Virus record (IMG/VR): IMGVR_UViG_3300050133_000102
Location: 1-52,571 of that record
Origin: a virus
Direction: 5' to 3' (one strand)
Length of the DNA stretch: 52,571 nt
This document shows positions 1,589 through 23,163 of this stretch, one piece after another. The stretch's first letter is position 1. Each line of letters begins with the position of its first letter. The position numbers and the translations under genes were made by a program. The notes beneath the pieces were generated by a model. It saw nothing but the letters and a program-made list of their open reading frames with translations, did not search any database and had not been told where the DNA came from.

Positions 1589-2119
1589 TTAATTACTTTC
1601 TTTTAGGACTATCGGATATACGGTGCTATTGAGCACAACAGATAGATGCCCATCCTCGGCTTCCAGTTTAATAGAGGCAAAATCACCATTGTAATCGTTA
1701 ATATTGCAAGCACACTCATAATCTATTGGTTCGCTTTCTGCCATCGTATCCGCCGCAATCTTACTTCTAAATAGCGCAAAATGAGCTCTTGTAACATAGT
1801 TCGTTATACAGCAGAGGCAATAAACCATGTTTTTATATATAGTAGCTGCTATGGCATAGGCACCATCGGATGCGTGTATAATTTTGCTTTCCAATGTATC
1901 CCATACAAATACCAACCCGCCTTGTCCGCTCGCCGTAAGCAAGAAGCCAACGATACAATCATCGATGACTTTCGCTGATCCACCTTCGAAATCACCTGCT
2001 GTTGCATATGACCAATACGGCAGCAGAGCAGAAAACGGGATGAAGTATTGCGCATTTTCTTTGATATACTCCAGAAAGATGTCTTTGTCCGCCACGAACT
2101 TCAAATGTTCAATACTCAT
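1589..2119 (-). CDS. Unknown protein, last gene of the BREX operon
   Basis: This 176-aa protein has no family I recognise. It starts at an ATG behind GGAG, 16 bases after the cysteine desulfurase stop, so it is very likely co-transcribed. It has no signal peptide or clear membrane segment. The middle is Cys-rich (MVYCLCCITNYV) and a second Cys pair occurs in ECACNINDYNGD. The fold looks beta-rich (GGLVFVWDTLESKIIHASDGAYAIAATIYK; GHLSVVLNSTVYPIVL). By position it could be an accessory or modifier of the sulfur/BREX pathway, or an immunity factor. That is inference from neighbourhood only. Confidence 0.7.
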   Translation of the reverse strand: MSIEHLKFVADKDIFLEYIKENAQYFIPFSALLPYWSYATAGDFEGGSAKVIDDCIVGFLLTASGQGGLVFVWDTLESKIIHASDGAYAIAATIYKNMVYCLCCITNYVTRAHFALFRSKIAADTMAESEPIDYECACNINDYNGDFASIKLEAEDGHLSVVLNSTVYPIVLKESN

Positions 2120-2135
2120 ATCCAGTCTCCAACTT

Positions 2136-3266
2136 CTATCGAATTATTTTAACCAGCGCTTCTGCAATGGAATCAACATCATCCGATGTATTGCTTTTTC
2201 CAAGTGAAATGCGAATTGTTCCCTTAGCAAGTTTCTCATCGAGATTGATAGCTTGAAGAACATGAGAAATATCCGTGTTTACACTATTACAAGCCGAACC
2301 GGTAGATATGCAGATTCCCATTAAGTCCATACGGTGAAGAATTGCTTCCCCATCCGCTCCGCCAAATGAAAGGCTTACGAATCCAGGCAGTGTTTTTTCA
2401 CCGCCATTGCGAACAAACGGAATATTCGACGCACAAAGAACCTTCAGCAACTGGTGTTCCAATGCTCGTGTGTGGACTATGTTGTCGCTGATGGCGGCAC
2501 AGTTATCTTTTAATGCGGTCGCCATTCCTACAATTGATGCAATGTTTTCTGTTCCCGCGCGATATTGGCTTTCCTGCGCACCCCCATCGGCATAGGACAT
2601 GATTTTCGTACCCTTGTGTATGTACAAAAAGCCGATTCCTTTGGGTCCATTGAATTTATGAGCCGATGCCGAAAGCATATCTACACCAAGCTTCTGAACA
2701 TCAATTTCGACGTGACCGACAGCTTGCACCGCATCTGTATGAAATAGCGCACCATGAGAGTGAGCCACATCGCAGAGTTCCTTAATCGGCTGTATAGTCC
2801 CAATCTCGTTATTGGCATACATAACAGACACGAGACGTGTCGTATTCGAAATCATCCCAATGAGTGCCTCGACTGTTATAATGCCATCCGCAGTCGGCAT
2901 AAGGTAGGCTACTGGATATCCAAGCCGTTCTACGGCTGCACAGGAATGTAGGAGCGCATGATGCTCAAATGCTGATGTAATCATTGCTCTCTTGTCAGTG
3001 TCAGCAAAAGCCGAGCCCTTTATGGCCCAGTTATCGCTTTCTGTTCCGCCGGAAGTGAAGAAAATCTCCTCTGGCATAGCATTGATGCTTTCGGCAATAC
3101 CTTCTCTCGCGTCAGAGAGGGCTTTCTTCGGCTTTCTTGCAAATGAGTATGGCTGTGAAGCATTGCCATACTCATCAAGTAGCCACGGCATCATTGCATC
3201 AAAAGCGGCTTTATTCAATTGTGTCGTTGCCGCATTATCGGCATAGATTAGCTGCTTCATACTCAT
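2136..3266 (-). CDS. Cysteine desulfurase (DndA/IscS/NifS family)
   Basis: This 376-aa class V aminotransferase-fold enzyme removes sulfur from cysteine as a protein-bound persulfide, with PLP as cofactor. The family signature is complete: YADNAATT at the N-terminus, the PLP-binding lysine in SASAHKFNGPKG (K204) and the persulfide cysteine in STGSACNSV (C326). Its ATG overlaps the brxL stop codon (TAATG), so the two genes are translationally coupled. No iron-sulfur scaffold gene (iscU/nifU) is adjacent, so a general Fe-S role is less likely. In dnd loci, DndA feeds sulfur to the PAPS-reductase-like DndC and builds its Fe-S cluster. The same partnership with BrxP here is the natural inference. 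Confidence 0.93.
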   Translation of the reverse strand: MSMKQLIYADNAATTQLNKAAFDAMMPWLLDEYGNASQPYSFARKPKKALSDAREGIAESINAMPEEIFFTSGGTESDNWAIKGSAFADTDKRAMITSAFEHHALLHSCAAVERLGYPVAYLMPTADGIITVEALIGMISNTTRLVSVMYANNEIGTIQPIKELCDVAHSHGALFHTDAVQAVGHVEIDVQKLGVDMLSASAHKFNGPKGIGFLYIHKGTKIMSYADGGAQESQYRAGTENIASIVGMATALKDNCAAISDNIVHTRALEHQLLKVLCASNIPFVRNGGEKTLPGFVSLSFGGADGEAILHRMDLMGICISTGSACNSVNTDISHVLQAINLDEKLAKGTIRISLGKSNTSDDVDSIAEALVKIIR

Positions 3267-4834
3267 TATTCCTTATACTGCACATCTGGTATTGTGCTTT
3301 TCCCGGGAACATCAAATTCCTTGGGATCAACGATGCACAGTTGCCTTTTAATTATTGCTCGCATTTCCTTTGCAGGGTTTAAGCAATATTTGATAAACTC
3401 ATCTGGCGCAATGTCTTCTTTGTGTTGGGCATTCGGGTATAATAGCTTAACAAAGGCGGTACAAAGCCTTTTTATTGCCGTCATATCACGCGTATCTGCC
3501 TTTGGAGGCACATCGATACAGGCATCGACGAGCGCTGCATATGAAAGCTCGTCGCGCATAGCGTGGAGAACCTCTGCAAAGTATTCGGTATTAATTGCCC
3601 ATCCGTTTGCAATCAAGTCTTGATTTAAGCGGGGAATTTTCCATCCGGGGATAAAGCCGTGAAATCTATCCAGAGTGGCAGATTCGCCAAAGACCTCGCT
3701 GATGTTTTCAACCATGTTCTGATTGATGTCAAATTTACCGGCGTCAATATTTCCAAGGACGATTACACCAGCATCCGTAGCCATCTGTGCGTCAAAGCCC
3801 TTTATCTCGCCAAACTCCATATAGTGTTTCAGCGCCTGCTGGATTTGCCCCGGCTGATCAAAAGTAATCGACTGTACTTCATCAAATCCGACATAATCGA
3901 ATCTGGTTAAAAGACCGCCTACTTTTTTCGCATTGTCATAAATCAACGTTGCGCGGGAAACCGTGCCGCCACTAATCAGCCAACCGCGTTTACTGATTTT
4001 TTCGTATATATAGCTCTTTCCCGTTCCTTTAGGTGCAAGTTCGATGAGATTGATTCTTTTCTCTACAAAAGGTAACAACCTTCTTAGGAAGAACAGCTTC
4101 GGTTCCTCACTAATTTCACCCGTTTCTGAGTCGACATATCCTGCTGGGTTATAGTCCACAGCAGAAATGATTACATCAATCCATTCGTGAATATCAAAGT
4201 TTTTCCTCGCTTCTTTATAAAAATTGAGGTCAACTCTGTATGGGCAAAACGGTTTGTACCCGCTTAGGTATATTTCGTTGGGCTTGTAACTGGGTTTGTC
4301 GTCCTCTTCCTCATTATGCTTAGACGATTTCCCGAACAGCTTATCATAGAATTTTGTCGGAGCGTGAGAGCCGTTATTAAAGTCGTCATCAAGGCTAAGC
4401 GTGCTTCCGAGGGCTAATTCAATGATTCCCCAGTTCTCGCTTTCTTTCAGCAACACATCGGCATATTGCTCTAATACTTCATCTGAGACTATGCCGGAAG
4501 CGCCGCCACGGGCACCTCCGAAATCTGGGAGTTCAAATTGAACGACGCTTTTTTTCAAGTTCACTTCCAGACGCACTCGGGCAAGCAGCTTTTCTGTGCT
4601 GCCCTGCATAAGACGGTATTTAATCACCTGATATGCATCTCGGTCGGGAATGAACTTTTTGATATAAGATAGCGTTCCATCATAGTCAATGTTCCCCTGA
4701 TTGTCAGAGAACTTCATTACAAGCCAATCACGCATATATGAAGGCAGACTCAGATTAGAAAAGAACTCAGACCGTTTAGGCTCTTTGAGAACAACCATAT
4801 CCGAGAATACCTGTTTTACTTTTTCTTCAAGCAT
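3266..4834 (-). CDS. brxL: BREX Lon-like protein BrxL
   Basis: This 522-aa AAA+ protein is of the BREX Lon-protease-like (BrxL) family. Walker A is APKGTGKS at about residues 267-274, followed by Walker B VGFDEVQS at about 313-322. The C-terminal Lon-like part follows, but I do not see a convincing Ser-Lys protease dyad. BrxL of other BREX types is a ring-forming DNA-binding ATPase needed for phage exclusion. I chose the ATG at 4834 because AAGGAGGT lies six bases upstream. The longer frame from 4888 lacks a site and would overlap the zinc-ribbon gene. The upstream gene's TGA lies within this ribosome binding site, so translation is coupled. Confidence 0.88.
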   Translation of the reverse strand: MLEEKVKQVFSDMVVLKEPKRSEFFSNLSLPSYMRDWLVMKFSDNQGNIDYDGTLSYIKKFIPDRDAYQVIKYRLMQGSTEKLLARVRLEVNLKKSVVQFELPDFGGARGGASGIVSDEVLEQYADVLLKESENWGIIELALGSTLSLDDDFNNGSHAPTKFYDKLFGKSSKHNEEEDDKPSYKPNEIYLSGYKPFCPYRVDLNFYKEARKNFDIHEWIDVIISAVDYNPAGYVDSETGEISEEPKLFFLRRLLPFVEKRINLIELAPKGTGKSYIYEKISKRGWLISGGTVSRATLIYDNAKKVGGLLTRFDYVGFDEVQSITFDQPGQIQQALKHYMEFGEIKGFDAQMATDAGVIVLGNIDAGKFDINQNMVENISEVFGESATLDRFHGFIPGWKIPRLNQDLIANGWAINTEYFAEVLHAMRDELSYAALVDACIDVPPKADTRDMTAIKRLCTAFVKLLYPNAQHKEDIAPDEFIKYCLNPAKEMRAIIKRQLCIVDPKEFDVPGKSTIPDVQYKE

Positions 4835-4847
4835 TTTGCTACCTCCT

Positions 4848-5051
4848 TCAGATAAATAATGTACACCCTTGCTCTTTAAATTCATCAATTTTGATTTTCA
4901 AGTCTGCAACGTCGCAGCTGAATGACTCGCTCATACATTCCAGACATTGAAACTTCTGAACATCAGGTGAGATCAATTTCTTATTGAGCGCAACTTCGTC
5001 CTTTGTCAACAGCCTGCCGCAGTCTCGACATTTTTTAGCTTGTGGTTTCAT
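4848..5051 (-). CDS. Small zinc-ribbon-like protein in the BREX operon
   Basis: This 67-aa protein has CRDC at residues 9-12 and CLEC at about 36-39, which can bind one zinc ion as a treble-clef or rubredoxin-like knuckle. An amphipathic helix (VADLKIKIDEFKEQGC) and a short hydrophobic tail (TLFI) follow. It starts at an ATG with AGGAG eight bases after pglZ and ends inside the brxL ribosome binding site. It is therefore an integral operon member and not a chance frame. The role is unknown. A small adaptor for protein or DNA contact between PglZ and BrxL is plausible but unproven. Confidence 0.85.
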   Translation of the reverse strand: MKPQAKKCRDCGRLLTKDEVALNKKLISPDVQKFQCLECMSESFSCDVADLKIKIDEFKEQGCTLFI

Positions 5052-5059
5052 AATAGCTC

Positions 5060-7408
5060 CTATAAATCGTCATCGACAACCAGCCCTTTTCTTTTCACAT
5101 GAATGGTTTCCGTCTCAGCTGTGAAGATGTTGTTCAAATATATGCGAACAGAGTAGCTTTGGTCGAGACTAAGTCCTGAAATAAGGACGTTCCAATTGTC
5201 TCCCTCTGTTGCATGAGCCTGTAATTGATTACCGTTAATTTCTACCGTTACGCTCTTTACCGAGCCTTTGGCTGTGATGGTTAAAACAGCGTCGCCATTA
5301 CCATCAAGATGAACTTCCGATGACGCCAAATCATATGAAAAATTAACACTGGCTTTTACTTTTTTCTGACCAAGCTTCTTGAAGTGTATAATTGGAACCA
5401 GAATTTCTTCTGGCGAAGCACCTCCATGTAATTCTCCGGGCGCATTACCAGAAATCGTAAAATGGTTATGCGTTTTAAACGCTATGACGGCTCCTTCTTT
5501 TACGGTATTTGTTATCGATGGCATCTTGCTATCTGATGGCATTTCACAATATCGTCCGAGGTTGTATACGGTTGCCGACGATGGCGAGTTAATTCCCTCT
5601 GTTTTATGAAAGCCTTTTGCTGCCATTCTGCTCATGCCGTGGTCTGCGGTAACAACAATATCTTTGTCGGGATGTTTTGCAGCTGCTTGGCAGATAATAT
5701 CAGCAATCTTGTCCATCATTTCAAACTGTTTCGCTATTATTGAATCATAATTGCAATCGCTTTTATCCTTGATGTGACTCAGTGAATCCAAGGCATCAAA
5801 CTTCTTTTCCGAAATAGTGGCAGGGTCGGCTTTTTCCATATTAACAGGCGTTACTGTTGGTAGCACGGCCGTTCCGATATCGACAAATGGATTCACCAAC
5901 GCTGAATTTTGCCGCTTTACCTTGGCAAGTAACATGTCTATCCACTCAATTCCCATGCCATCTATCCACAGGAAGTACGCATCACCTGACCCTTTTAGTG
6001 AAAACAGGATTTGACCCCTTGTTTTGTAATCATAGGGGTTAATTTCGCCTGCCATGTTTGAAAACGAAAGGCTGAAGCGGTCTGCAACCTTGTTAATCTT
6101 ATACTGAGAAATATATTCGGACAGTTCTGTCTCCAGATGTTCCGGCTCGGATAAATAGAGCACAAGGTCTGGATATTTTTCTTTAAGGATTGTCTTAAAA
6201 TCGCTGGGTTGCTTTCCTTCTGATAATGACTGTGACAGCAACTCGATTATTTTTGTCCGTTCATCATGCGTTTTCCCTGTAAGAATTTTTATTTTAATTC
6301 TGGCATCTGATAAACAATCATATCTCGCCCAGAATTCTTGGCTCAATTCATCGATGTCGAGGGAGTTAAGGGCGTCTTTTCTCTGCTCAAGCCATTCATC
6401 AAAATTTGTATTATCAGTGCAACTTAGGATAGCGCACTCAAGAGAGAGGGGGACTGTGTCAGCAGTGCTTGCCTTGGATAAAGCAAACGAAATATAATCA
6501 CTCTTTTGATTAAGCCCAAGCGTATACCACAGGTAAAAAAGCCATTTTTTGCTTGAATCGAATGTGTTCCAATTGCTGAGAATTTGATATGGATCGAATG
6601 TTACACGGTTAAGTGCTCTCGTTACAAGGCTTTCAAGCGTTCCATTAGCAGTTGGAACACACGGAACAAGAGATGTCCACTGTTCATCAGTGCCCAACTC
6701 TTTTATTAACTTTGCGTTGTTCTCCTTGAGAGAACTGCAAATATATGAAAATGGGTCGGTAACAATAGAAAGAGCATAATCACCGCTGGACTGCGACAAC
6801 TGCTTTATTTGTCGGGTCGCAAATGACATGCCCGACTTTATTTTTTTGTCATCCCATAGCTGCAACCACGATTTCAGCCCGTTCGCATTGACAATTCCGG
6901 GTTGGCTTGCGAACGCTTTTGAGTATGCCAGTGCGGAAAAGTCCGAGGGTGCCTCATCAATTTCAAAAAGAGCGTTTCCAAACCGTTCCTCATCCAATGT
7001 TCCCACAATTAATTGGAATAATCCCTTGGCGGCAAAAATGGGTATCCAGACTCTTTTCTTTGAATGCACATGCCGGTTCAGAATGGAGTACAGGCATGCA
7101 GAGTTCCGCTCGGTGACTTCACCGACACGCAAGTATTCTCCAAGGTGTGGGAGAAGTATATTGTTGTCCTTATGCTGATCCAAGTAATCGATGAGTGCTT
7201 TTAAGTCAGGTACGGTATCTTCGCCTTTGCAGAACATATCATCAGAAAGACGAACAACAATGTCCGCCTTGTCAGACAAGGCAGCTATCAGTGTATAGTA
7301 TGTCTTCAAGTTATTCACGAAGAACACACGCGCAACAAGCCGACTTTCTGCGTTATCGGTCGCTATTCCAGTCATCAGTTCTGGTAATGAAATCTGTTTT
7401 ATTAACAC
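5060..7408 (-). CDS. pglZ: BREX alkaline-phosphatase-superfamily protein PglZ
   Basis: This 782-aa protein carries the PglZ domain typical of all BREX systems. Metal-site motifs of the alkaline phosphatase superfamily are visible: FLWIDGMG (about 479-486), VVTADHGMSR (about 585-594) and GELHGGASPEEILVP (about 658-672). The N-terminal 450 residues are alpha-helical, and about 100 residues at the end look like a beta-sandwich. The start is GTG at 7408 behind AAGGAGG. It lies 20 bases downstream of brxC. PglZ proteins are needed for both host marking and phage exclusion in studied BREX systems. The exact substrate is unknown. Confidence 0.92.
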   Translation of the reverse strand: MLIKQISLPELMTGIATDNAESRLVARVFFVNNLKTYYTLIAALSDKADIVVRLSDDMFCKGEDTVPDLKALIDYLDQHKDNNILLPHLGEYLRVGEVTERNSACLYSILNRHVHSKKRVWIPIFAAKGLFQLIVGTLDEERFGNALFEIDEAPSDFSALAYSKAFASQPGIVNANGLKSWLQLWDDKKIKSGMSFATRQIKQLSQSSGDYALSIVTDPFSYICSSLKENNAKLIKELGTDEQWTSLVPCVPTANGTLESLVTRALNRVTFDPYQILSNWNTFDSSKKWLFYLWYTLGLNQKSDYISFALSKASTADTVPLSLECAILSCTDNTNFDEWLEQRKDALNSLDIDELSQEFWARYDCLSDARIKIKILTGKTHDERTKIIELLSQSLSEGKQPSDFKTILKEKYPDLVLYLSEPEHLETELSEYISQYKINKVADRFSLSFSNMAGEINPYDYKTRGQILFSLKGSGDAYFLWIDGMGIEWIDMLLAKVKRQNSALVNPFVDIGTAVLPTVTPVNMEKADPATISEKKFDALDSLSHIKDKSDCNYDSIIAKQFEMMDKIADIICQAAAKHPDKDIVVTADHGMSRMAAKGFHKTEGINSPSSATVYNLGRYCEMPSDSKMPSITNTVKEGAVIAFKTHNHFTISGNAPGELHGGASPEEILVPIIHFKKLGQKKVKASVNFSYDLASSEVHLDGNGDAVLTITAKGSVKSVTVEINGNQLQAHATEGDNWNVLISGLSLDQSYSVRIYLNNIFTAETETIHVKRKGLVVDDDL

Positions 7409-7428
7409 GGATATGCCTCCTTCCGCTA

Positions 7429-10400
7429 TTAGTCCTCATCAAGAAGGAACAGACAAGCTTCTGCACTCGAATCAAGTAGCTTAATCAGTTTAGCTCTCAA
7501 CTGTTCTTCTGTCATTTTTGCTGCCTTTTTCTTGGCATTACCACTCACTTCGTCTCTAAGCCCTATCGTGATGAATTGCTCGGTGATTTTTCTAATGGCA
7601 ACAACAGAGTTATTCCACGATGAATAATCCCTGTATCCGCTGTCCTGAATCTTTATTTTGAGCTCATCAATATGCGGTAAAAGGAGATTATAGTATTTCT
7701 CCGATGCAACATTTACGATGAAACATCTGTCGATTTCATTTTTATCCTTCAAAACGGCAAAATCTGTTTCTGTGATAGAACTCAAAGCATTTTCCAATCG
7801 AATGGAATCAATTCGCTCGTTGCGACTGAGCGCAGAAACCACAGAGAAAATAAATGTGCAATTGGGCATTACCCAAGCAACGGGCATCATGTATGTTTGC
7901 GCCCATTCTGCAACGCCTGCTGTGTCTGTCTTTGCCAGCCAAATGGCAAGCAGAGAATTCGCCTGCTTTGTGTATGCTAAATCGTTGATTTTATTGAGGA
8001 TTGCGGTCTTGAAACTGTGTTCTGTTTGGGAGTATGGCTCTTTCTGCAACGCTTTAAGGATATCGCTGCATTCTGCGTCTGAAAATGTGCCCATCCCATT
8101 TTTTGCGATATACGCTTTCAAAACATTCATTGGATGTGAGATATTTTCAATGGCATCCTTTGTGTACAGCTCCAATTCGCTGATGATTGCGGCCTTTTCT
8201 TCGCTCGAATATCCAATCCACTTGCCACTTGCGATATTATGTAAAGTAGCAACAGTCTTTGCCCAGTTATCAGGAAGACCGGCATACACGCAGCCCGGGA
8301 CACGAATATAGTCCAGATAATTCGACAGGGTTTCTTTGATTTTTTCTACGGATTCTGCCGTTCCATTAAGGGCAGAATTCACTACACCTACGAGCGTAAG
8401 GTCGATAGTCAGTTTTGCTGTTGCTTCAGCAACCTCACTTTCGCGCCATTGCCACTTTTCTTCTTCAAGAGCTTTGCTGAGCATGTTGAACAGCGTGTCT
8501 ATCGAGAAATTATATTTTTTACAGGCATTCTCTGCATCTGGAGCGGTTTTAAAAACAAAATTTTTCATGCCATTGGCGAGTTTTGACCTACCTTTAAACA
8601 GACCCGTAAATAGAGGCACGTACGCTTTTGCGCTAACTTTTACAAGGCTGACTATGTCTTCCATGACGGCTGTTTGGCTGCCAATCTCCAGAATGTATTC
8701 AACGTACTTATCCACGATTTCGCAGATTTCTGTTTTTATACCCGCGTAATCCATATCCTCAAGATATTTTAAAGCCCAGAATGGATAGCCGTTCTTTGTA
8801 ATGTGGATTTTTACATTTTTGCGGCAATCGTAAACGTCACCAATTTCTTCTGGGGTAAGTGCGAAAATTCTCCGTGTGATGTCTTTGAAGCGTTTCTCAA
8901 TATCGCTTTCGCTGGAGAGTTTCATGCCAGCGGATTTGCCGGAGAGCATGCTGACGACCATCGTCGGAATCGTATCTTCATCCAGCTTGTGCGCATTGTT
9001 GCCGTCATACCATGTAAATTTTCCAACATAGAAATGGAATGCAAAACCGAGAAGGTAGCAACACACACTGGTATCGTAGTAACCGAGTTTCTGCTGCATA
9101 TCGTCCCACAGGTCGGTGAGCAGCAATGTGCCGGAAGTTAATGCCTTATTGAGATATGTACACAACGAAGCCATGCTGCGACCGACCTTCGTTTCGGTCA
9201 TAGCCATGATATCTTCAATGGTTCCACAATCCCAGACGTTTTCATCATTATCGCGGAGAACATCAACGCAGTCCTGCCACTGCTGATTGAAATTCTTTTG
9301 CTTGTCATTTGCTGCGCTCTTGGTTTCAAGGGTGGTCTTAGACACACCATAGTAAGCCGGTGCCATAGCCGGTGACTTATAAAGCGTAATTTTACGAATG
9401 ATATTTTCAGGTGCCGCAGGGAAAAACCTGAAAACAATCTTTTCATAATTCGAGATAACATTTTTGTTTGTATAAACGTGCGCAGGCGTATCTCCATATA
9501 GAAGGTCCATATCTTTGCCAATAGCAGTGCTGACCCAGTTGCCGACAAGGTCAACAGCCTGAGTCTGATAGGAGTTCGCATTTACGGTATTTCCGGCTCT
9601 TTGTGCGAGGGAACCGTTGGCAACCAGCTCATACCAGCTCTGGAATATTTCCTCTGGCAAAGGATATCTCATCACGGTAACAAGAACACGATGTGTTTCA
9701 TCGTCCGCAATTAATCCAGAAATGGTCGTTTTAATCTTATCGCTTTCTTCGACAGATGGTACTGCCACAATCAGTAAGCCGAACTTATGGTGCGTTTTTT
9801 CTACGGCTTTTTTCAACTCCCCGAATTTGAAGTTGAGTTGCTGCGTTGTTCCCCAACAGGTATCAATAATCAGGCGCTTGACAACAGCTTTTTCATCCGG
9901 TACGAATTGCTTTTTTAGAATTGAGCCGAAACAAGAGTCCGTACCGAGCAGTTTTGCGGGTGAATTGTCCTTTTTGACTTTTTCAATTTCTGCATCAAGC
10001 TCTCCACCGGTGCTGGAATACGGAAGCTCGATTCTCGAACCCTCATGGAGGTCGGGTGCCAAAACAAGAACATTCAGAGGATCGGAGCTGAGCGAATGCA
10101 GGTAGCTTTTCACTGAATCCTTGTCCATTATGCCGGAAAAACAGTCGCAGAGGGTTTTCTCAGTTACTTGGATTCCCTTGCTGCCTCTGGTTTTCTTCAA
10201 GCTATGCCCTGTACCAATGGTGGCAAGCAATAGCATTGCAGCTTTAAAAACGCGAAGCGCACGGTCGTCGCTGATGAGATTTTTAACCTTGCTGTAGTGC
10301 TTGAGAGCATCCTCGGCGGTTTTAGTCAGGTCTTTTTTACCGCCAAGATTGTTTACGAAGAAGTAATCCCACAAGTAGTCAGGGGTTACCCATTTCCAGT

Positions 10401-11655
10401 CATACTGTCCATTGTTATGAATATAAGCACGGAAACCGTCCTCACCGCTACTCTTTAAGAATTCAAAAATACTTCTGTTGGACGCGGCAAGTCCAGCGAC
10501 CATAGAAACAAGATTAACCGTCATCGGGTGGATGGGGAATATTTTCTTAAGCGTGTTAGCATCCATGTCAGAGTCAGGGTCACCCATGTATGAATGCACA
10601 CTACCGCTAATAGATGAATAGAGGTCTTCGCAAATATCCTCCCAGTTGCCCTTCATCCCGTCTTTGGTGATGATGCTCTCACCGATAAGTTTGAAAGTCG
10701 TTTTTTTGCTTAAGGACACATCAATCTTATGGAAGCGGGCATCGGCTTTTCCGAGAGAGCCATTCACACTCTCGGAAAACAGGCCGGGATACTCGTGCAT
10801 AACATAAATAATAAAGAACGGCAGCTCTTTGGAGAAGATAGATAATTGCTGTATTATGTCGAGGTCATTATTCCGAATATACTCGGTAAACTCATCCCAG
10901 ATAATAAATATCCCTGATTTCGATAATTCCTCATTACCTGAGTAGACATCTTTTAGCCACGCTTTGAATGTTTCGAGGTCGGTTGCCAGACCGATGTTCA
11001 TCGACTGCAGGATTTCCTGGGCGCTGGAACAAGCCGTAATATCACCATCTTGGACAGCGTCATAGAAACTGTCAAACGTATCATATGTGCTCCAATGTTC
11101 AGGATACTCGCCGTTTTCAAAATCCTGTACCAGCTTCGGTCGAAAGTCCTTAACAGTGCTACGAACCGAGTCGACCAGAGAATTTCGACCTGTATAAGAG
11201 AAACCATTCTCTTTCAGAATATCCCGAACTGACTGTTCGATCTGAAAAAGGAATTTGTTGGAGGTATTAAGCTGCTTGCTTTCACCGCTGCGGAACTTCA
11301 CATAATAGCGAGCTTTTTTCCGGGCGGCGAGAAACTTGTCCTTCACATCGAGGAACAGCTTATTCTTATTCAAAAAGTTTTCCACGATGCCGTAGTCATC
11401 CTGCAGAAAGTGCTTAATGACAATAGCAGAGTAGGTCTTACCTGTACCATAAGAGCCCTTAATCCAGTAATGCCACACATCTTCGTTGGGGTCATCGGGG
11501 CGCAGGGAGCTGGCAAGCAGTTTTACTGCGGTCACCATGTCGTCATTAACAATATAGCGACTCCAGAAATCCGCATTTCTGCTATCGGAGCTGATATCTA
11601 CCACAGACTCATATCCGGGCGTCAATTCTATGAAGGAATCATATTTGTTTGCCAT
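7429..11655 (-). CDS. brxC: BREX ATPase BrxC
   Basis: This very large protein (1408 aa) has one AAA+/STAND-like NTPase near the N-terminus, with Walker A KGSYGTGKT (about 66-74) and Walker B GIFIIWDEF (about 248-256). A long helical C-terminal region follows. The size and order (BrxP-BrxC-PglZ-BrxL) fit the type 4 BREX BrxC. The start MANKYDSF at 11655 has a GGGGGG ribosome binding site and lies one base after the brxP stop. The longer frame from 11688 would overlap brxP. The C-terminus ends in a basic, Lys-rich helix and an acidic tail (LLDED). Confidence 0.92.
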   Translation of the reverse strand: MANKYDSFIELTPGYESVVDISSDSRNADFWSRYIVNDDMVTAVKLLASSLRPDDPNEDVWHYWIKGSYGTGKTYSAIVIKHFLQDDYGIVENFLNKNKLFLDVKDKFLAARKKARYYVKFRSGESKQLNTSNKFLFQIEQSVRDILKENGFSYTGRNSLVDSVRSTVKDFRPKLVQDFENGEYPEHWSTYDTFDSFYDAVQDGDITACSSAQEILQSMNIGLATDLETFKAWLKDVYSGNEELSKSGIFIIWDEFTEYIRNNDLDIIQQLSIFSKELPFFIIYVMHEYPGLFSESVNGSLGKADARFHKIDVSLSKKTTFKLIGESIITKDGMKGNWEDICEDLYSSISGSVHSYMGDPDSDMDANTLKKIFPIHPMTVNLVSMVAGLAASNRSIFEFLKSSGEDGFRAYIHNNGQYDWKWVTPDYLWDYFFVNNLGGKKDLTKTAEDALKHYSKVKNLISDDRALRVFKAAMLLLATIGTGHSLKKTRGSKGIQVTEKTLCDCFSGIMDKDSVKSYLHSLSSDPLNVLVLAPDLHEGSRIELPYSSTGGELDAEIEKVKKDNSPAKLLGTDSCFGSILKKQFVPDEKAVVKRLIIDTCWGTTQQLNFKFGELKKAVEKTHHKFGLLIVAVPSVEESDKIKTTISGLIADDETHRVLVTVMRYPLPEEIFQSWYELVANGSLAQRAGNTVNANSYQTQAVDLVGNWVSTAIGKDMDLLYGDTPAHVYTNKNVISNYEKIVFRFFPAAPENIIRKITLYKSPAMAPAYYGVSKTTLETKSAANDKQKNFNQQWQDCVDVLRDNDENVWDCGTIEDIMAMTETKVGRSMASLCTYLNKALTSGTLLLTDLWDDMQQKLGYYDTSVCCYLLGFAFHFYVGKFTWYDGNNAHKLDEDTIPTMVVSMLSGKSAGMKLSSESDIEKRFKDITRRIFALTPEEIGDVYDCRKNVKIHITKNGYPFWALKYLEDMDYAGIKTEICEIVDKYVEYILEIGSQTAVMEDIVSLVKVSAKAYVPLFTGLFKGRSKLANGMKNFVFKTAPDAENACKKYNFSIDTLFNMLSKALEEEKWQWRESEVAEATAKLTIDLTLVGVVNSALNGTAESVEKIKETLSNYLDYIRVPGCVYAGLPDNWAKTVATLHNIASGKWIGYSSEEKAAIISELELYTKDAIENISHPMNVLKAYIAKNGMGTFSDAECSDILKALQKEPYSQTEHSFKTAILNKINDLAYTKQANSLLAIWLAKTDTAGVAEWAQTYMMPVAWVMPNCTFIFSVVSALSRNERIDSIRLENALSSITETDFAVLKDKNEIDRCFIVNVASEKYYNLLLPHIDELKIKIQDSGYRDYSSWNNSVVAIRKITEQFITIGLRDEVSGNAKKKAAKMTEEQLRAKLIKLLDSSAEACLFLLDED

Positions 11656-11656
11656 T

Positions 11657-12466
11657 TCAATTACCCCCCAGTACGATATTAACGACATCCAGTGAGTTCT
11701 TCTCGCTATTCAGTGTTATATTATCGAGGTCAGCAACAAATGCGATTTTGATGAAATCGGGATAGTCATTTGCAAGCTGACGTACCATCTCCTTGAACGC
11801 GTCCTCGTCCAAAGCAAAAATCGTGACAGGGTCCATACCGACGAAATTCTCCGGGCGGTTGTCGCGGATGTTCTTTAGCTCCTTCAGCGTAATGTTAAAG
11901 TGTCCGCCAAGCTTCTCCGCGTATCGATACATCGCATAGAGGATGGCAGTGCCATCAGGCGTAGACCAGCCTTTTTTTGTGAAGCGATATGAGTTGCCAC
12001 TCGGAATCGGTACGCCCATTTCTAATGTCGAACCTATAGGGCTATTAACAAAGGTTTCGGCCAATGAAGTAATGGCATTATTCCGTGTAGAAGCGGAATA
12101 AATATCATCAATCATTTCCACAAGCTCCGCCTTTGTGTAGGTTTCATCATTTGGCACATTAAGCAGATACCATTTTACCAGCGTGGAATTATAAGCTAAA
12201 TTAGTCCATATCACAGCCCATGTAAATGGGTGAAATGGGCCTATTTCTATCAATTTTTCACCAAGAGCGGTAATTTGACCATTCTTTCCATTTGATGTGC
12301 CAACTTCGATTACTTCGCTCTCTTTTAGATAGACCTTAAGCGCATCATATTGGCGATTGCCGTATTCCTTCGAACTCCAGCAATCGTTACCTTGCTCGAA
12401 GAAATGTTCAAGCCAAGCTCCCCTTAATCCAAAGTGTTGATACCTATTCATACCCTTAAGGTCCAT
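11657..12466 (-). CDS. Internal start: stand-alone DUF4007 protein from within brxP
   Basis: Inside the brxP frame, codon 516 is an ATG preceded by a perfect AAGGAGGT at 12473-12480 with six-base spacing. This exceeds the site used for brxP itself. Initiation here would give a 269-aa protein consisting of the DUF4007 domain alone. Two readings are possible: the locus makes both a fusion and a free DUF4007 protein, or two formerly separate genes have recently become one frame. This is a sequence observation; the separate product is inferred. Confidence 0.55.
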   Translation of the reverse strand: MDLKGMNRYQHFGLRGAWLEHFFEQGNDCWSSKEYGNRQYDALKVYLKESEVIEVGTSNGKNGQITALGEKLIEIGPFHPFTWAVIWTNLAYNSTLVKWYLLNVPNDETYTKAELVEMIDDIYSASTRNNAITSLAETFVNSPIGSTLEMGVPIPSGNSYRFTKKGWSTPDGTAILYAMYRYAEKLGGHFNITLKELKNIRDNRPENFVGMDPVTIFALDEDAFKEMVRQLANDYPDFIKIAFVADLDNITLNSEKNSLDVVNIVLGGN

Positions 12467-14011
12467 GTTGCTACCTCCTTGTGTTGTGGACAATGAACGT
12501 GCTACTTTGCATCCTTTTGCAACTTCCGTGATACATTTTCCACAATGAACACATTTTTCGCTTATTATTGAGATTTTTCGATTTTCATCTATGGTAAACG
12601 CCCCTGTCGGACATTCCACAGAACAACTATTGCAGCCAATACAATAGGCGGCCTTATTTGCTAAACCACGTAACCAACTTATGGTGAATCTGTCCATACT
12701 GCTGAAGCCGGAATATGTTACCGTTGAATTATCTTCACCTACTTCAAAATTGTAGGTTTTATCCTTAATAATCTGTTTCCCGGAGTTTTGATTACGTTCG
12801 ACAATTGGACCTATTATTCTTCCGACCTCTATCCAAGGCTGTCTAATTTCACTAAAGACAAATTGCAAGGTATCATCTTGAATTATCTCGTGTACGCGGT
12901 TACCTCCATTTTTTAATCCGCGTCCTCCGAACCGACCTTTCCAACCACCTTGGGCAACGTACTTTTTTACTTCTTTTTCAGGCTTGTTATCGGCAGCATA
13001 TTCTTCAACTCGTGCCAAGAATGGTGCCAAATCATCTTTATATGCGATATTTGCAATTCCATCCCACCAAGCTGATGACATTGGACACACAGCACAACCG
13101 ACTCGGAATAGGCCTAATCTGTATGCATTATTGAACAGAATATCACGCTCCAAGATATACAAATATATCTCAGATGTACTCCATTTCAAAATGGGGCTGC
13201 AATTAATCTGATTAATATGTTTCTTTCCTTCGGACAATTCTGTATAGGTTGAACGCTGCTCACTTTCTTCGGCACGAACGCCATCAAAAACCACGGCTTT
13301 GATATTTTCGCCTTCGGATATTTTTTGCAAAAGTACAAGTGTCGGCACTGATTTGTGTACACCGCAGCACCAGCGAAGTCTTCTCCCCGGAGGACCGAAT
13401 TCGCTCCACGATTCCTTCGCGTCAAACTCCGATTTTGCGGTTTGAAAATTTAGATTCGGATAATGTTTTTTTGCTTTTTCGACCGCTTGGTATGTATCGC
13501 GAAGTTCCATCCCCGTATCTCCAAAGACCACAAGGAATTGGTCTGGTACCAAGGCTCTTTGAACGATATCAAGAATAACAATGGAATCTTTGCCACCGCT
13601 ATATGCAGCAACAAACTTATAGCCCTTTGTAGCATATTCATCGTATGTTGCTCGAATAAATTGAACAGTTCTTTGTACAAGCCCCTCCATGATGGAAGCA
13701 TTTGTTTTTATAAGCTTATCAACATCAATCGGCTCCAACTTTTTAATTTCGGTGTTCTTAATTACGATTTTCGGCTTTTCATAAAAGCTGCCGCCCTTGG
13801 CTTCCGCAATCACCTCGCCGTTTAACACATATTTCCGAATACCCTCTGCCCACAGTAGCGGCGCTTTGGTATCGGGATATTCCCAGACCTTATACATTTC
13901 GAAGAAGTCCAGTTCTTCCTTGAAAACAGGTCTTATTTCTTTTTGAACGGTTACGGAAACATCGAGCTTGAAAATGCCGTTTTCTCCGTCCACCCATCTA
14001 TATCCATACAT
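11657..14011 (-). CDS. brxP: BrxP: PAPS-reductase-like, ferredoxin and DUF4007 fusion
   Basis: This 784-aa protein is the marker of type 4 BREX, where it stands in place of the PglX methyltransferase. It has a PP-loop ATP pyrophosphatase/PAPS-reductase domain with SGGKDS at 138-143. A Cys-rich site RRLRWCCGVHK (about 210-220) and GCAVCP (305-310) may hold an Fe-S cluster, as in DndC. Two ferredoxin [4Fe-4S] motifs follow: CIGCNSCSVECP (457-468) and CVHCGKC with a late Cys (487-501). The last 269 residues (516-784) match DUF4007, starting MDLKGMNRYQHFGLRG. The likely reaction is ATP-dependent activation of a DNA phosphate or of a sulfur transfer. The chemistry is inferred from DndC. AAAGGATGG precedes the ATG. 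Confidence 0.9.
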   Translation of the reverse strand: MYGYRWVDGENGIFKLDVSVTVQKEIRPVFKEELDFFEMYKVWEYPDTKAPLLWAEGIRKYVLNGEVIAEAKGGSFYEKPKIVIKNTEIKKLEPIDVDKLIKTNASIMEGLVQRTVQFIRATYDEYATKGYKFVAAYSGGKDSIVILDIVQRALVPDQFLVVFGDTGMELRDTYQAVEKAKKHYPNLNFQTAKSEFDAKESWSEFGPPGRRLRWCCGVHKSVPTLVLLQKISEGENIKAVVFDGVRAEESEQRSTYTELSEGKKHINQINCSPILKWSTSEIYLYILERDILFNNAYRLGLFRVGCAVCPMSSAWWDGIANIAYKDDLAPFLARVEEYAADNKPEKEVKKYVAQGGWKGRFGGRGLKNGGNRVHEIIQDDTLQFVFSEIRQPWIEVGRIIGPIVERNQNSGKQIIKDKTYNFEVGEDNSTVTYSGFSSMDRFTISWLRGLANKAAYCIGCNSCSVECPTGAFTIDENRKISIISEKCVHCGKCITEVAKGCKVARSLSTTQGGSNMDLKGMNRYQHFGLRGAWLEHFFEQGNDCWSSKEYGNRQYDALKVYLKESEVIEVGTSNGKNGQITALGEKLIEIGPFHPFTWAVIWTNLAYNSTLVKWYLLNVPNDETYTKAELVEMIDDIYSASTRNNAITSLAETFVNSPIGSTLEMGVPIPSGNSYRFTKKGWSTPDGTAILYAMYRYAEKLGGHFNITLKELKNIRDNRPENFVGMDPVTIFALDEDAFKEMVRQLANDYPDFIKIAFVADLDNITLNSEKNSLDVVNIVLGGN

Positions 14012-14028: not shown

Positions 14029-16590
14029 TTAGTTTATAGTCACCTTACTGTTTTTCTCCGTCCAGTAAAAGCGCAAATCGCCGGCAACAGTCTTATGTAC
14101 ATTCCACATCTTTTCTGAGCCGTGAATTAATCCTTTGTCGAGCAAAAACTCTCTGAATTCTGAAGCGGTTAGTTCTTTTGGAAGCGAAAATGACTTTGAT
14201 ACTTCATTCCAGACCAAATCCGAAAATGTTCTGAATGGAGAATTCTTCTTCAGAATAGCTGCCGGAATGGTCTTTTTGTCGTTGTCATTACCTGCTTCGA
14301 CGGTAATGTATCCAATATCAAAAAGCCGTAACATGTCTTCCAGAAAAAGAGGCGACCATTGAATATTGGTCGGTACAGCCGGAAGCGTCGTGTAGAAATA
14401 GTCTGCAATTTCGCCGAAAGCGATATAGGCTTCGCCTTCAAGCAGGTTCTCTATTTGAACCCTGAGAGCGCTCAGGAAATTATCGTTCACATAAAGTGCT
14501 TCCTTCAGGGCAAAGCAGTTTTCCGCATACTGAAGGAAGGATTTACTGCCTGAGGTGAACAGAATATTTGAGAATGACTGGTCTGGTGTTGCAGAGCCGA
14601 TTGACTCAAAAAAGGTAAGTGCCTGTTCGCGGGTAAAAATATTCTGATGCTCTCGACCATACTTGATTAACAGGCCGTGAAAGTCTTTCGGATAGTTTGG
14701 CTCGTTCCTCCAGATATGCATACCATTCAGGAACAAGAAAGAATTACCTTTATAATTCTCCTGAGTAAAAAGATGCACCGCGAGGTCAAATACCTCCGGG
14801 CGCGACTCAAACGCATTGTTGTAGAAGAAGAAATCATCCAGCCGAAAATGCGCATCATTATATAGCTGCTGTGCGGATGTGTAATCGCCATTAGCGGCAA
14901 ATTGCTTTGTCAGGACATCAAGAAGAATTCCCGCCATTTCGTCATAATTGCTTATATTATCCTTGTGATAATATTTTTTAAGCGCCTTTACTGCATGACA
15001 TGCCGTCAATGCATGATTGACCTGCGGTGTACTGTAATTTGAAAAGTGCGCAAAAACATCTTTCTCTGATATTCCGTCACTACTGGCTTTCAGGAAAGCA
15101 GACAGTTCATTGGTAAGCCCTGTGGATGCAGTCTCAGTTCTTGGCTCTGCCTTTGCTTTCTCAGGGGTACTAATTGCAGGAAAATCCACTGCGTCAATTC
15201 CATCTGGATAAAGATAGCTAAAGTATTTTACCAGTTTCTGAAACGCAGCGGAAAAGCGATTATGCTGGTCTTGATTAATCTGCCTGAACCCTTCATCTGC
15301 CATTAAACAAGAGACGGTCGACAGCGCTTCTTTGCTGTCAACGCCAGAAATATTTCTGCTGGGAAGATTGTGTTCTCTTGCATGTGATTCTGCCTTGTTT
15401 AGCGCGGAAACATAGCTGCGGCACGTACCATCTGCCATTTTTTCAATGTTTTTCAGCCACTCCGAAAATGTAATATCAGAATTGTTGCCAGACGCAATAT
15501 GCGTTTCTTCCTTTGGCTGCATCTTATCATGAACCCTATCGGAAGGCTTCTTTTCTTGATATTCAATTACAACATTTTCTGAAGAAATGCCACAAATATC
15601 AAGTAATGCTGTAATCTTCTTCACTATGTCGGTGGCGCTGATATTGGTTTCGATATAATAATCATCAATGATTTGTTTCGGCGCAGTCATCCCATCGGCA
15701 GCACCAAAATCCAGCCTGCCGCTTTTGTAAAATGACTGTCCAATCGGAATGATGGCTGTATAATCCGTATAAATGCTTTTGAACAGCTTAACATACAACT
15801 CAGTCCAATTTGAAACTGATTCCTCACGAACCCCGCGATATGTGAACACTACGGGTCTTGTGTATGCGAGAGATGGCATATTCCTGAAATCGATTATCAT
15901 GTTATTGTTTGTTTCTGTGGGAGTTGCGGATGCTACTGGGATTACTTCAGTGGTTTCTTCTGCAGGGGTAATATTGGGCAAATCCATCACAAATGCGTAA
16001 TACCAGTTAGCCGCAGAGATGATATTGTTAATCTGCTTCTTGTTTTTTATCCTGAATATTTTGTTTTGGCTCACCGTTTTGGCAAAGCGCTTGATGGTGC
16101 TTTCATCTGTTGTTTCAAACAACGGGGCAGAAAGGACTTTGATTTTCAGACAAAACTCTTCTGCAACAGGCAAAAATCGGCATAGGAAATCAGGCTGGAC
16201 TTTTGGCGCTTTGACTGCCAGCCACGCACAAAACTGCTGACGAGTTTTTTCTTGAATATCACTCACGCCTTTTGCCTCCATCAATATTTTTTCGTAACCT
16301 TTGTAATCATTTTTGTACAGTTGCACCATCTGCCTGAAAAGGTCAGATGTGTTTTTCAGACCGATACCATCGTCAGAAAATAGATAATCAAGTTCACCCA
16401 GCCGCATGTTGATCCCATTTTCGTTGCGATATGTTTCGTCAATAACTACGCCTCGACTGGACGCCCGTAAGCGCAGCGCTTCAGACAGTGTGGTGAAGAC
16501 AGCCCTTCTCGACAATTTGTTTTCTTTTGTCTTCCAGTACGCTTCAATAAGAAGGGCTGCTTCGTACTGATCCCATTTTGGCTGTCGCAC
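14029..16590 (-). CDS. Large unknown protein of the BREX operon
   Basis: This 853-aa protein starts at GTG (16590) with AAGGTG five bases upstream and ends 17 bases before brxP. I do not recognise the family. An N-terminal helical module (QPKWDQYEAALLIEAYW to about residue 210) resembles ones I have seen in restriction-linked proteins. A beta-alpha region follows (VVFTYRGV..., about 230-345), then a region like a SAM-like core-binding fold (TCRSYVSALNKAESHAREHN, about 390-460). The 330-residue C-terminal half looks helical with winged-helix-like segments (LTASEFREFLLDKGLIH). No nuclease or ATPase motif is evident. It may be the target-recognition or specificity component, or an effector. Confidence 0.8.
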   Translation of the reverse strand: MRQPKWDQYEAALLIEAYWKTKENKLSRRAVFTTLSEALRLRASSRGVVIDETYRNENGINMRLGELDYLFSDDGIGLKNTSDLFRQMVQLYKNDYKGYEKILMEAKGVSDIQEKTRQQFCAWLAVKAPKVQPDFLCRFLPVAEEFCLKIKVLSAPLFETTDESTIKRFAKTVSQNKIFRIKNKKQINNIISAANWYYAFVMDLPNITPAEETTEVIPVASATPTETNNNMIIDFRNMPSLAYTRPVVFTYRGVREESVSNWTELYVKLFKSIYTDYTAIIPIGQSFYKSGRLDFGAADGMTAPKQIIDDYYIETNISATDIVKKITALLDICGISSENVVIEYQEKKPSDRVHDKMQPKEETHIASGNNSDITFSEWLKNIEKMADGTCRSYVSALNKAESHAREHNLPSRNISGVDSKEALSTVSCLMADEGFRQINQDQHNRFSAAFQKLVKYFSYLYPDGIDAVDFPAISTPEKAKAEPRTETASTGLTNELSAFLKASSDGISEKDVFAHFSNYSTPQVNHALTACHAVKALKKYYHKDNISNYDEMAGILLDVLTKQFAANGDYTSAQQLYNDAHFRLDDFFFYNNAFESRPEVFDLAVHLFTQENYKGNSFLFLNGMHIWRNEPNYPKDFHGLLIKYGREHQNIFTREQALTFFESIGSATPDQSFSNILFTSGSKSFLQYAENCFALKEALYVNDNFLSALRVQIENLLEGEAYIAFGEIADYFYTTLPAVPTNIQWSPLFLEDMLRLFDIGYITVEAGNDNDKKTIPAAILKKNSPFRTFSDLVWNEVSKSFSLPKELTASEFREFLLDKGLIHGSEKMWNVHKTVAGDLRFYWTEKNSKVTIN

Positions 16591-16889: not shown

Positions 16890-18554
16890 TTACTGCTCAG
16901 TTACATTGACCTTATTGGTTTTCTTAGCCCACGAATAACCGTAAAGCTCATTACCACCCTCGCTAAGGCGGATTATCGTAGTGCTATCCAATATTTCCTG
17001 AATGCGTTTTGTCGGTGCATCCTGCTTATCATACGCAATGAATATTTGCTTTCCACTCTGAAGATATAACTCCATGATTCTTTCCAACGGCTCATAGCCT
17101 ATGTGATTGAACATTAGCGAATCATGAATGATTGCTGGTAACGGTGTTATCTTCAAAACGCTCAAGTCAAAAACTATCATACTCTTAAACCCTGTTCCCA
17201 TACCGCCATCGTCCGGAGTATAAAAGCTATACTTTGCGCTGCTTTCAAACTGAATGACCGGAGCCATTCTGGTGCCGTTGTAGATATAATCATTAAATCT
17301 AACCATTTGCTCGTTGATTGTCGAGGCAATAAGGTTCAGTACCTCCATTTCAACACCTGACAGAGCTTTTTTCGCTGCCTTGACATCGGCCACCAATGTT
17401 TGTGAGGTTTCGCAAGCCTTATTCTGCGATTTCAGTACGGCTATCCTACGTGTCAAATCGGTGAACTTCTGCAAAAATTTCTGCGGGATAGTAACCGGAA
17501 TCCCAAATTCACGCTGTTGCGCTTGCAAATCCTCGATTTCAGCATTTAATACATCTAACAAAGATTGGAGTCTACCAATTTCCTCCTCCATTTCGTTTTC
17601 CAAAATGCTGTGTATTTGTTGGTGAAACCTTTCAACAGAATCAAGTCTCTGAATGTCGATTTCAGGGAAGAGCTCAGAAAGCTCGCGGTAATCACTGTCA
17701 GTAATTGTAAAACCACTGTTGTTGATTTTTATGGTGTTTTGCTGAGAAATCAACTTACTCCTATTTCGTTTAAATAGTGTAATCCGGCTCTTTATAGCCA
17801 GTACAGTATCTGCGTTATCCATATCTTCCTCGGTCATATTGACATCAAGGGTGTCTGTTAACGCCTGAAGCTCTTCCTCTAATCTTTCAATCTCTCTTTC
17901 GTTATCCATGGCTTGCCGGGCAGTAGGGACATATACCTGAAGGACATCTTCTTTTTTGGCGTCGTTAAAGGCGTCCTTTTTGTCCTCCTTTTTCTTGCTC
18001 TCGCTTTTATACTGCTCAATCTGAGTGTAATAATTAAAAAGTTTTTCTAAAGCTGTAATTGCAGCGGAGGCGCTTTCTTTTGAATCTGCATGCAGCGGAA
18101 GTTTCTCTGAATAATTGTCCTTGCCGTAGATTCGCATGTATCGTCCTACAATATCTCTAAATGTGATCGATGGGAGATCAATCTTATACATTTCAAATAA
18201 ATGCTGACGAAAATCTGCTAATTTGATTGTCTCTATTACACTGTAGTTTTCATTGCATTTATTCACTTCAGTTGGCGTAACAATGCTACGGGAATAGTAT
18301 TCTTTCTTCCCGCCAAAAACAAAAGCAAAACTTACGGTATGCCGTACATCGGCGAATCGAGCTTTTACGTCGGTTCCTGTGTAGTAGGTATCGCCGCCGA
18401 AACAAAAGTCGACAGCAAGTAAAAATGTCGACTTTCCAATAGAATTGTCGGATTGCTTTCCGCCACGTACTGTATTCAGACCGCTGTGAAATATGATACG
18501 GCCGCGTTTGCTACCATTCGATACAAACTCATCACTCATGATTTCGCTCAACAT
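16890..18554 (-). CDS. ABC-3C system ATPase (DUF2326)
   Basis: This 554-aa SMC/RecN-like ABC ATPase is of the ABC-three-component type. Walker A lies in GGKQSDNSIGKST (about 31-43), close to the N-terminus (IIFHSGLNTVRG before it). Long heptad-rich coiled coils occupy about 150-270 and 320-420. The DUF2326-like C-terminal ATPase half contains FNDYIYNGTRM, FDLSVLKITPLPAIIHDSLMFNHI and a Walker-B-like QIFIAYDKQD. Such ATPases have been proposed as sensors of foreign or invading DNA. GGAGGTG lies seven bases before the ATG, and the gene overlaps the end of the middle-component gene by 23 bases. Confidence 0.88.
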   Translation of the reverse strand: MLSEIMSDEFVSNGSKRGRIIFHSGLNTVRGGKQSDNSIGKSTFLLAVDFCFGGDTYYTGTDVKARFADVRHTVSFAFVFGGKKEYYSRSIVTPTEVNKCNENYSVIETIKLADFRQHLFEMYKIDLPSITFRDIVGRYMRIYGKDNYSEKLPLHADSKESASAAITALEKLFNYYTQIEQYKSESKKKEDKKDAFNDAKKEDVLQVYVPTARQAMDNEREIERLEEELQALTDTLDVNMTEEDMDNADTVLAIKSRITLFKRNRSKLISQQNTIKINNSGFTITDSDYRELSELFPEIDIQRLDSVERFHQQIHSILENEMEEEIGRLQSLLDVLNAEIEDLQAQQREFGIPVTIPQKFLQKFTDLTRRIAVLKSQNKACETSQTLVADVKAAKKALSGVEMEVLNLIASTINEQMVRFNDYIYNGTRMAPVIQFESSAKYSFYTPDDGGMGTGFKSMIVFDLSVLKITPLPAIIHDSLMFNHIGYEPLERIMELYLQSGKQIFIAYDKQDAPTKRIQEILDSTTIIRLSEGGNELYGYSWAKKTNKVNVTEQ

Positions 18555-18771
18555 ATCTCAACACCTCCGTTTCTTCGTCATAATCTATTTTATTAAGGGC
18601 GTATAGGCAATCTAAAATTTCCATATATTCATTTACTCCGGTAACGTTCCCTTGAACTCTTTTATATAGTTCCGAAACACTGCATGGAGCTTTTTTTAAT
18701 ATCTGTAGAATGCTTGGAAATTTTGATATGATGCTTTCGTTGTATGAAAACAACTTATTCGGCAATAACAT
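18532..18771 (-). CDS. ABC-3C middle component
   Basis: This small helical protein (79 aa from the ATG at 18771; up to 87 aa from 18795) has a winged-helix-like C-terminus (FPSILQILKKAPCSVSELYKRVQG...LDCLYALNKIDYDEETEVL). It overlaps the genes on both sides, typical of the middle component between the effector/sensor and the DUF2326 ATPase in ABC-3C systems. I chose 18771 or 18774 because AGGTG lies just upstream within the previous gene. The 18795 start has no site. Confidence 0.8.
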   Translation of the reverse strand: MLLPNKLFSYNESIISKFPSILQILKKAPCSVSELYKRVQGNVTGVNEYMEILDCLYALNKIDYDEETEVLRYVERNHE

Positions 18772-20845: not shown

Positions 20846-20853
20846 TTCCATGC

Positions 20854-23152: not shown

Positions 23153-23163
23153 ACACCAGATGC

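What the first reader, a model, noticed from the sequence alone, without database searches (positions are those of the whole stretch)
1589..14011. Type 4 BREX core with its own cysteine desulfurase
BrxP, BrxC, PglZ and BrxL are the defining type 4 set, which lacks the PglX methyltransferase. Here a complete DndA/IscS-like cysteine desulfurase is coupled to brxL by a TAATG overlap, with no Fe-S scaffold genes nearby. Together with BrxP's DndC-like PP-loop and Fe-S motifs this points to sulfur-based DNA marking as the self-signal.
Basis: partly seen in the sequence, partly recalled or inferred. Interest (0 to 1): 0.75.

Follow-up and report, generated by a model that had tools for sequence, protein, structure and literature searches.

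The report
Phage-borne sulfur-tagging BREX defence operon
A bacterial virus appears to carry a complete set of genes that should tag DNA with sulfur and block rival viruses; this kind of system and its sulfur-supplying enzyme are already published, but two further conserved parts and its home in a virus's interchangeable defence slot are not discussed in the literature I could read.

Summary
The window holds an intact type 4 BREX operon (BrxP, BrxC, PglZ, BrxL) with a catalytically intact DndA/SspA-like cysteine desulfurase (CD) joined to brxL by TAATG. The headline is already known: type 4 BREX is a published phosphorothioation system, and a 2026 survey reports the desulfurase in 56% of such loci. 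I recover 28 of 49 (57%).

Beyond the finding:
(1) The operon starts one gene earlier. UP853 (14029-16590) has a fairly constant C-terminal winged-helix array and a fast-evolving N-terminal part of 142-1042 aa. It is in every member of one of the two BrxP clades and absent outside it where checked. In 398 genomes, 8 of 8 strong hits abut brxP.
(2) A missed 67-aa zinc-ribbon gene (4848-5051) with an invariant C-terminal GCxLF cysteine tail occurs in 29 of 29 CD+ loci, at three operon positions.
(3) The window is an IMG/VR virus contig. BREX and an adjacent Lamassu-like trio fill the slot where 43 related phage records carry type I RM, type 1 BREX or Lamassu.

Phosphorothioate itself, and the roles of UP853 and the zinc ribbon, are inferred.

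The parts
14029..16590 (-). UP853: first gene of the operon; constant C-terminal tandem winged-helix part, fast-evolving N-terminal modules
   Evidence: No hit of the window protein in Pfam, PADLOC, NCBIfam or PHROGs; 17 bp upstream of brxP; family directly upstream of brxP in 29/48 covered complete loci; AlphaFold pLDDT 85.7; Foldseek hits to tandem winged-helix proteins UFL1/DDRGK1 and SelB, with low TM-scores
11657..14011 (-). brxP: PAPS-reductase-like PP-loop (SGGKDS), CC...GCxxCP cysteines, ferredoxin 4Fe-4S motifs, weak DUF4007 tail
   Evidence: SGGKDS, RWC and RxGCxxCP motifs in 66/66 family members
7429..11688 (-). brxC: AAA+ ATPase with Walker motifs; probable start ATG near 11655
   Evidence: PADLOC BrxC 6.6e-55, SspC 5.8e-21
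5060..7408 (-). pglZ, BREX-4 type
   Evidence: NF033445 342.9 bits
4848..5051 (-). Zr: 67-aa zinc ribbon, CxxC...CxxC with C-terminal GCxLF
   Evidence: family in 29/29 desulfurase-positive loci
3266..4834 (-). brxL: BrxL_N plus MCM-like AAA+ ATPase
   Evidence: PDB match 8emc BrxL
2136..3266 (-). cysteine desulfurase (CD), DndA/SspA-like; active-site STGSAC loop and PLP lysine AHKFNGPKG present
1589..2119 (-). 176-aa ORF of unknown function, 16 bp after the desulfurase; membership of the operon unsure
   Evidence: no relative in the loci surveyed
16890..18554 (-). neighbouring defence system: LmuB-like SMC/DUF2326 ATPase
   Evidence: PADLOC PDC-M68B 3.4e-14, LmuB 2.1e-8; Pfam DUF2326
18532..18795 (-). 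small middle component of the ABC-3C/Lamassu-like trio
   Evidence: phrog_6259 4.1e-21
18755..19870 (-). LmuA-like effector with ABC-3C CTD11
20113..52571 (+). tailed-phage replication, packaging, tail and lysis genes; DNA homology to related phages begins sharply at about 20113

Best explanation
This is a type 4 (phosphorothioate) BREX operon of a subtype that adds a desulfurase, a zinc ribbon and UP853. It is carried as cargo by a temperate tailed phage, next to a Lamassu-like system. Proposed working: the desulfurase takes sulfur from cysteine. The zinc ribbon, through its C-terminal cysteine, docks with or relays that sulfur. BrxP, with BrxC and its own DUF4007-like DNA-binding tail, puts it into the DNA backbone. 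UP853's winged-helix array holds DNA, and its variable front part decides which DNA is engaged. PglZ (nuclease/phosphatase) and BrxL (DNA translocase-like ATPase) act against unmarked incoming phage DNA. Shown here: gene identities, intact motifs, operon layout, co-occurrence, fast evolution of UP853's front part, and the phage-slot synteny. From the literature: phosphorothioation by type 4 BREX. Inferred: the roles of the zinc ribbon and UP853, marking as the self-signal, and activity of this copy.
For: Gene identities and motifs. Desulfurase downstream of brxL in 28/49 loci; BREX-4 desulfurases lie on one side of the tree (support 86, not starred), apart from SspA. UP853 needs one change on the BrxP tree and is in all 39 rows of one clade spanning 8 phyla. 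In 398 genomes, 8/8 strong UP853 C-domain hits abut brxP. UP853's front part is the fastest-evolving piece: median identity 35%, against BrxP 67, BrxL 71, desulfurase 61 and the UP853 C-part 47. Zinc ribbon in 29/29 CD+ and 4/21 CD- loci, at three operon positions, with GCxLF in 37/37. Phage slot: 43 related records carry type I RM, type 1 BREX or Lamassu in the same place and mostly the same orientation. In a related complete phage (PV036449) an integrase reading frame runs across the record ends, so that genome is circular and its RM arm is phage DNA. Literature: PMC12839542, PMC11931770.
Against: No chemistry was tested. The left end of the window has PadR-like genes and no integrase, so the exact prophage border is not seen. 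The closest BREX-4 (L010, BrxP 68%) is chromosomal, and IMG/VR calls the window and its relatives linear. The UP853/desulfurase co-occurrence is one event on the tree, so it is no independent evidence for joint function. Relatives without UP853, desulfurase or zinc ribbon exist (Bacteroidota clade), so these parts are not needed by every type 4 BREX.
Confidence: 0.65

Rival explanations
1. The desulfurase mainly builds the Fe-S clusters of BrxP, as DndA was reported to do for DndC, rather than being the direct sulfur donor for DNA.
For: BrxP carries a CC...GCxxCP set and ferredoxin-type 4Fe-4S motifs; a DndA paper on assembling DndC as an Fe-S protein is cited in PMC12839542.
Against: Hosts of related systems hold several other desulfurase homologues (3 to 5 per whole genome tested); BREX-4 loci without a desulfurase still have BrxP with the same motifs. 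The two roles are not exclusive.
Confidence: 0.35
2. The BREX/Lamassu block is host DNA that merely flanks an inserted prophage, and the IMG/VR border was drawn too far left.
For: GC 0.39-0.46 on the left against 0.51-0.52 in the phage core; PadR-like genes and no integrase at the left end; L010 is chromosomal.
Against: Same-slot, mostly same-strand defence arms in 43 related phage records, several with the same Lamassu type; the circular relative PV036449 carries its arm.
Confidence: 0.2
3. UP853 is a regulator or an infection sensor, not a specificity part.
For: Some family members carry RNA polymerase alpha-CTD, sigma region 4 and HARE-HTH modules in the front part; fast evolution also fits a sensor.
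Against: It is the first gene of the core operon, strictly tied to brxP and universal in one clade; it shares the winged-helix style of the BrxA/DUF4007-type parts described for BREX.
Confidence: 0.4

Closest known systems
Type 4 BREX (brxPCZL), phosphorothioation-based BREX; Yuan et al. Nat Commun 2026 (doi 10.1038/s41467-026-68412-5, cited, not readable here) and PMC12839542
   Same: BrxP, BrxC, PglZ and BrxL in the same order; desulfurase and small zinc finger already noted as frequent companions in PMC12839542
   Different: UP853 is not mentioned in the main texts I could read; zinc ribbon sits between pglZ and brxL; phage-borne beside a Lamassu-like trio
Ssp system (SspABCD with SspE or SspFGH)
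   Same: desulfurase, PAPS-reductase, SspC-like ATPase, DUF4007/SspB-like DNA-binding part
   Different: fused BrxP with ferredoxin domain; PglZ and BrxL instead of SspE/FGH; desulfurase on another branch of the tree than the SspA genes sampled here
Dnd system (DndABCDE)
   Same: DndA-like desulfurase; PP-loop sulfurtransferase
   Different: no DndB, DndD, DndE or DndFGH
Phage-borne defence hotspots (P2/P4 type, PMC9122126)
   Same: interchangeable defence genes at a fixed place in a temperate phage
   Different: another phage family; large modification systems (type I RM, BREX) often preceded by an ABC-3C/Lamassu-type module

Membership tests
Type 4 BREX | BrxP (PAPS-reductase) in place of PglX | tested here: met
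   PADLOC BrxP 9e-240; no PglX in the left 20 kb
Type 4 BREX | BrxC, BREX-4 PglZ and BrxL in one operon | tested here: met
Type 4 BREX | phosphorothioate in DNA | not testable with these tools
   needs mass spectrometry; only motifs checked
Type 4 BREX | phage exclusion | not testable with these tools
   none
Type 4 BREX with desulfurase (PMC12839542) | desulfurase and small zinc finger in the locus | tested here: met
Dnd system | DndB/C/D/E set | tested here: not met
   only weak DndC hits inside BrxP, none of the others
Ssp system | SspE or SspFGH effector | tested here: not met
   no such PADLOC hit among the operon and Lamassu-like proteins
Lamassu (neighbour) | LmuA and LmuB | tested here: inconclusive
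   hits cover only part of the profiles and are shared with ABC-3C/PDC-M68
Phage cargo | located inside the phage attachment sites | tested here: inconclusive
   synteny and a circular relative support it; the window's own borders were not seen

The most novel reading that the evidence does not exclude
UP853 is the missing target-recognition part of phosphorothioate BREX: an HsdS-like subunit with a constant core and exchangeable front modules. The zinc ribbon is a dedicated sulfur relay between desulfurase and BrxP. Temperate phages carry this eight-gene system in a defence slot in which a Lamassu-type module guards a modification system.
Probability: 0.22. Interest if true: 0.75.

Novelty: new variant of a known kind. 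Interest (0 to 1): 0.5.

Why it matters
The claim as handed over is already in print. What would matter is the rest. Type 4 BREX has no PglX, so what chooses its sites is open; UP853 is a concrete, testable candidate, present in 29 of 48 complete loci here and in 9 of 15 in an independent genome sample. The zinc ribbon tracks the desulfurase wherever it sits in the operon, which makes it a candidate link in the sulfur path. A temperate phage family that carries whole BREX or RM systems, often behind a Lamassu-type module, in one exchangeable slot would be a source of such systems and a natural test of backup defence.

Tried and rejected
Dnd or Ssp membership was rejected: their other parts are missing. 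DNA-pattern search of viral contigs with the window BrxP alone found nothing; the alignment found few full-length BrxP genes in IMG/VR. MT835511, labelled Bacteriophage, is bacterial chromosome around a BREX-4 locus and was not counted as phage-borne. The desulfurase/UP853 Fisher value (6e-6) was dropped as evidence of joint function once the tree showed a single UP853 change. PDB sequence search for UP853 found nothing useful, and the fold search gave tandem winged-helix proteins at E about 6e-4 with low TM-scores, so only the fold style is claimed. PDB searches for PglZ and BrxC found nothing. IMG/VR end classes gave no circular relatives. The promoter scan upstream of UP853 was at chance level. 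The Yuan et al. full text and all supplements could not be read, so UP853 may be drawn in a published figure.

Full report
1. What is there. The window is an IMG/VR virus record, linear, 52571 bases. Its right part, from about 20.1 kb, is a tailed phage: exonuclease, SSB, DNA polymerase, primase, SNF2 helicase, terminase, portal, capsid, tape measure, endolysin. Its left part is a block of minus-strand genes of lower GC, about 0.42 against 0.52. That block holds, in order of transcription, a Lamassu/ABC-3C-like trio (19870 down to 16890) and then UP853, brxP, brxC, pglZ, a zinc ribbon (Zr), brxL, the cysteine desulfurase (CD) and a 176-aa ORF. The TAATG join of brxL and CD is real. CD has the active-site loop STGSACNS and the PLP lysine, and is related to solved desulfurases including SspA 6m4j. 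BrxP has the PP-loop SGGKDS, the cysteine sets and ferredoxin motifs, conserved across the family. Nothing is broken by stops or frameshifts.

2. PMC12839542 describes type 4 BREX as phosphorothioation-based, reports a desulfurase in 255 of 457 taxa (56%) as a possible sixth core part, and notes a small zinc-finger companion. PMC11931770 lists brxPCZL as a phosphorothioate-synthesis family. Yuan et al. 2026 (Nat Commun 17:1717) is cited there and in PMC13326643 but could not be opened. My survey gives CD downstream of brxL in 28 of 49 covered loci.

3. UP853. In the survey of 80 relatives from 85k genomes, a family of large proteins sits directly upstream of brxP, usually within 60 bp. On a BrxP tree (69 rows) it needs one change: every row of a 39-row clade over 8 phyla has it, and no row outside does where the flank is covered. 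In an independent sample of 398 genomes, 9 of 15 BREX-4 loci have it, and all 8 strong hits of its C-terminal domain abut brxP. The window protein matches no family library; some other members show HARE-HTH, RNA polymerase alpha-CTD, sigma region 4 or integrase SAM-like modules in the front part. Family members share a C-terminal part of about 313 aa (median), while the front part runs from 142 to 1042 aa with missing, repeated and rearranged modules. The front part is the fastest-changing piece of the operon (median 35% identity where BrxP is 67%). AlphaFold models are confident (pLDDT 85.7 for the whole protein and for the C-part), and the C-part looks like a string of winged helices (closest UFL1/DDRGK1, SelB). 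A constant core with variable DNA-binding-type modules is what a specificity or sensing subunit would look like. That is an inference.

4. Zinc ribbon. A 67-aa gene hidden under the long TTG-start brxL ORF (4848-5051) belongs to a family found in 29 of 29 CD+ loci and 4 of 21 CD- loci. It lies in one of three places: brxL>Zr>CD (22), pglZ>Zr>brxL (5, including the window), brxP>Zr>brxC (2); the other 4 follow brxL in loci without a desulfurase. All 37 members end in GCxLF. In the 398-genome sample, 10 of the 11 strongest hits lie on the same contig as a BREX-4 brxP, and the eleventh is in a genome whose brxP is on another contig. A small protein that follows the desulfurase gene around the operon and ends in an invariant cysteine is a candidate sulfur relay or adaptor. 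Inference again.

5. The phage slot. Related phages (exonuclease at least 78% identical) share DNA with the window only from about 20113 rightwards, apart from Lamassu-like gene matches in two records. Left of that point, mostly on the minus strand, 43 records with at least 4 kb of arm carry type I RM (HsdM in 19), type 1 BREX (BrxA/B/C in 5) or Lamassu (LmuA in 8), the rest unlabelled genes (family checks). L153, L161 and L172 carry Lamassu followed by type 1 BREX, the same arrangement as the window's Lamassu-like trio followed by type 4 BREX. Others start with a PDC-S06 trio or a short gene before type I RM. PV036449, a related complete phage, has a tyrosine-integrase reading frame running across its record ends, so it is circular, and its arm is a PDC-S06 trio plus type IIG RM genes. 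So the slot is phage-borne in a relative; for the window this is by synteny. The nearest BREX-4 outside (L010) is chromosomal. Few IMG/VR records hold full-length BrxP; L005 and L256 also lie beside phage genes, but after the lysis genes.

6. Likely working and rivals. See the best explanation. Steps resting on the literature: sulfuration by BrxPC with a desulfurase. Steps inferred: the Zr relay, UP853 targeting, exclusion by PglZ/BrxL against unmarked DNA, and the Lamassu-like trio as backup. The desulfurase may instead or also serve BrxP's Fe-S clusters; hosts have other desulfurases that could substitute.

7. Verdict. As handed over, the finding is a correct reading of a known system. The added parts and the phage setting make it a variant worth follow-up. 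Interest 0.5.

Noticed in passing
window 20113; L119-L198 left arms: Fixed defence-cargo slot left of the phage replication module: type I RM, type 1 BREX, Lamassu or PDC-S06 systems exchanged between related phages, often with an ABC-3C-type module first and the modification system second.
   Followed up: partly
window 16890-19870: Lamassu/ABC-3C-like trio with a CTD11 effector; same subtype in the same slot in L161, L174 and L181.
   Followed up: partly
L050, L051, L053, L061, L066, L003, L046 between brxP and brxC: Bacteroidota-type BREX-4 loci without UP853 carry a conserved ORF of about 145 aa between brxP and brxC.
   Followed up: no
L255 6644-11998: brxP split by two tandem copies of a 438-aa transposase-like gene (both copies have the same listed N-terminus).
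   Followed up: no
L023, L032, L067 and window desulfurases: The desulfurase tree disagrees with the BrxP tree (window CD groups with L023/L032/L067; L005/L006 CD group with L045/L035), suggesting exchange of desulfurase genes between systems.
   Followed up: partly
window 33509-34570: Lone minus-strand 353-aa ORF in a low-GC stretch (0.43) between a ParB-like methyltransferase and the terminase; no Pfam hit.
   Followed up: no
window 31581-33146: Phage gene joining a ParB-N domain to an N6/N4 DNA methyltransferase.
   Followed up: no
MT835511.1 (L223): GenBank record labelled Bacteriophage sp. is bacterial chromosome (serine dehydratase, pyruvate phosphate dikinase) around a BREX-4 operon.
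   Followed up: yes
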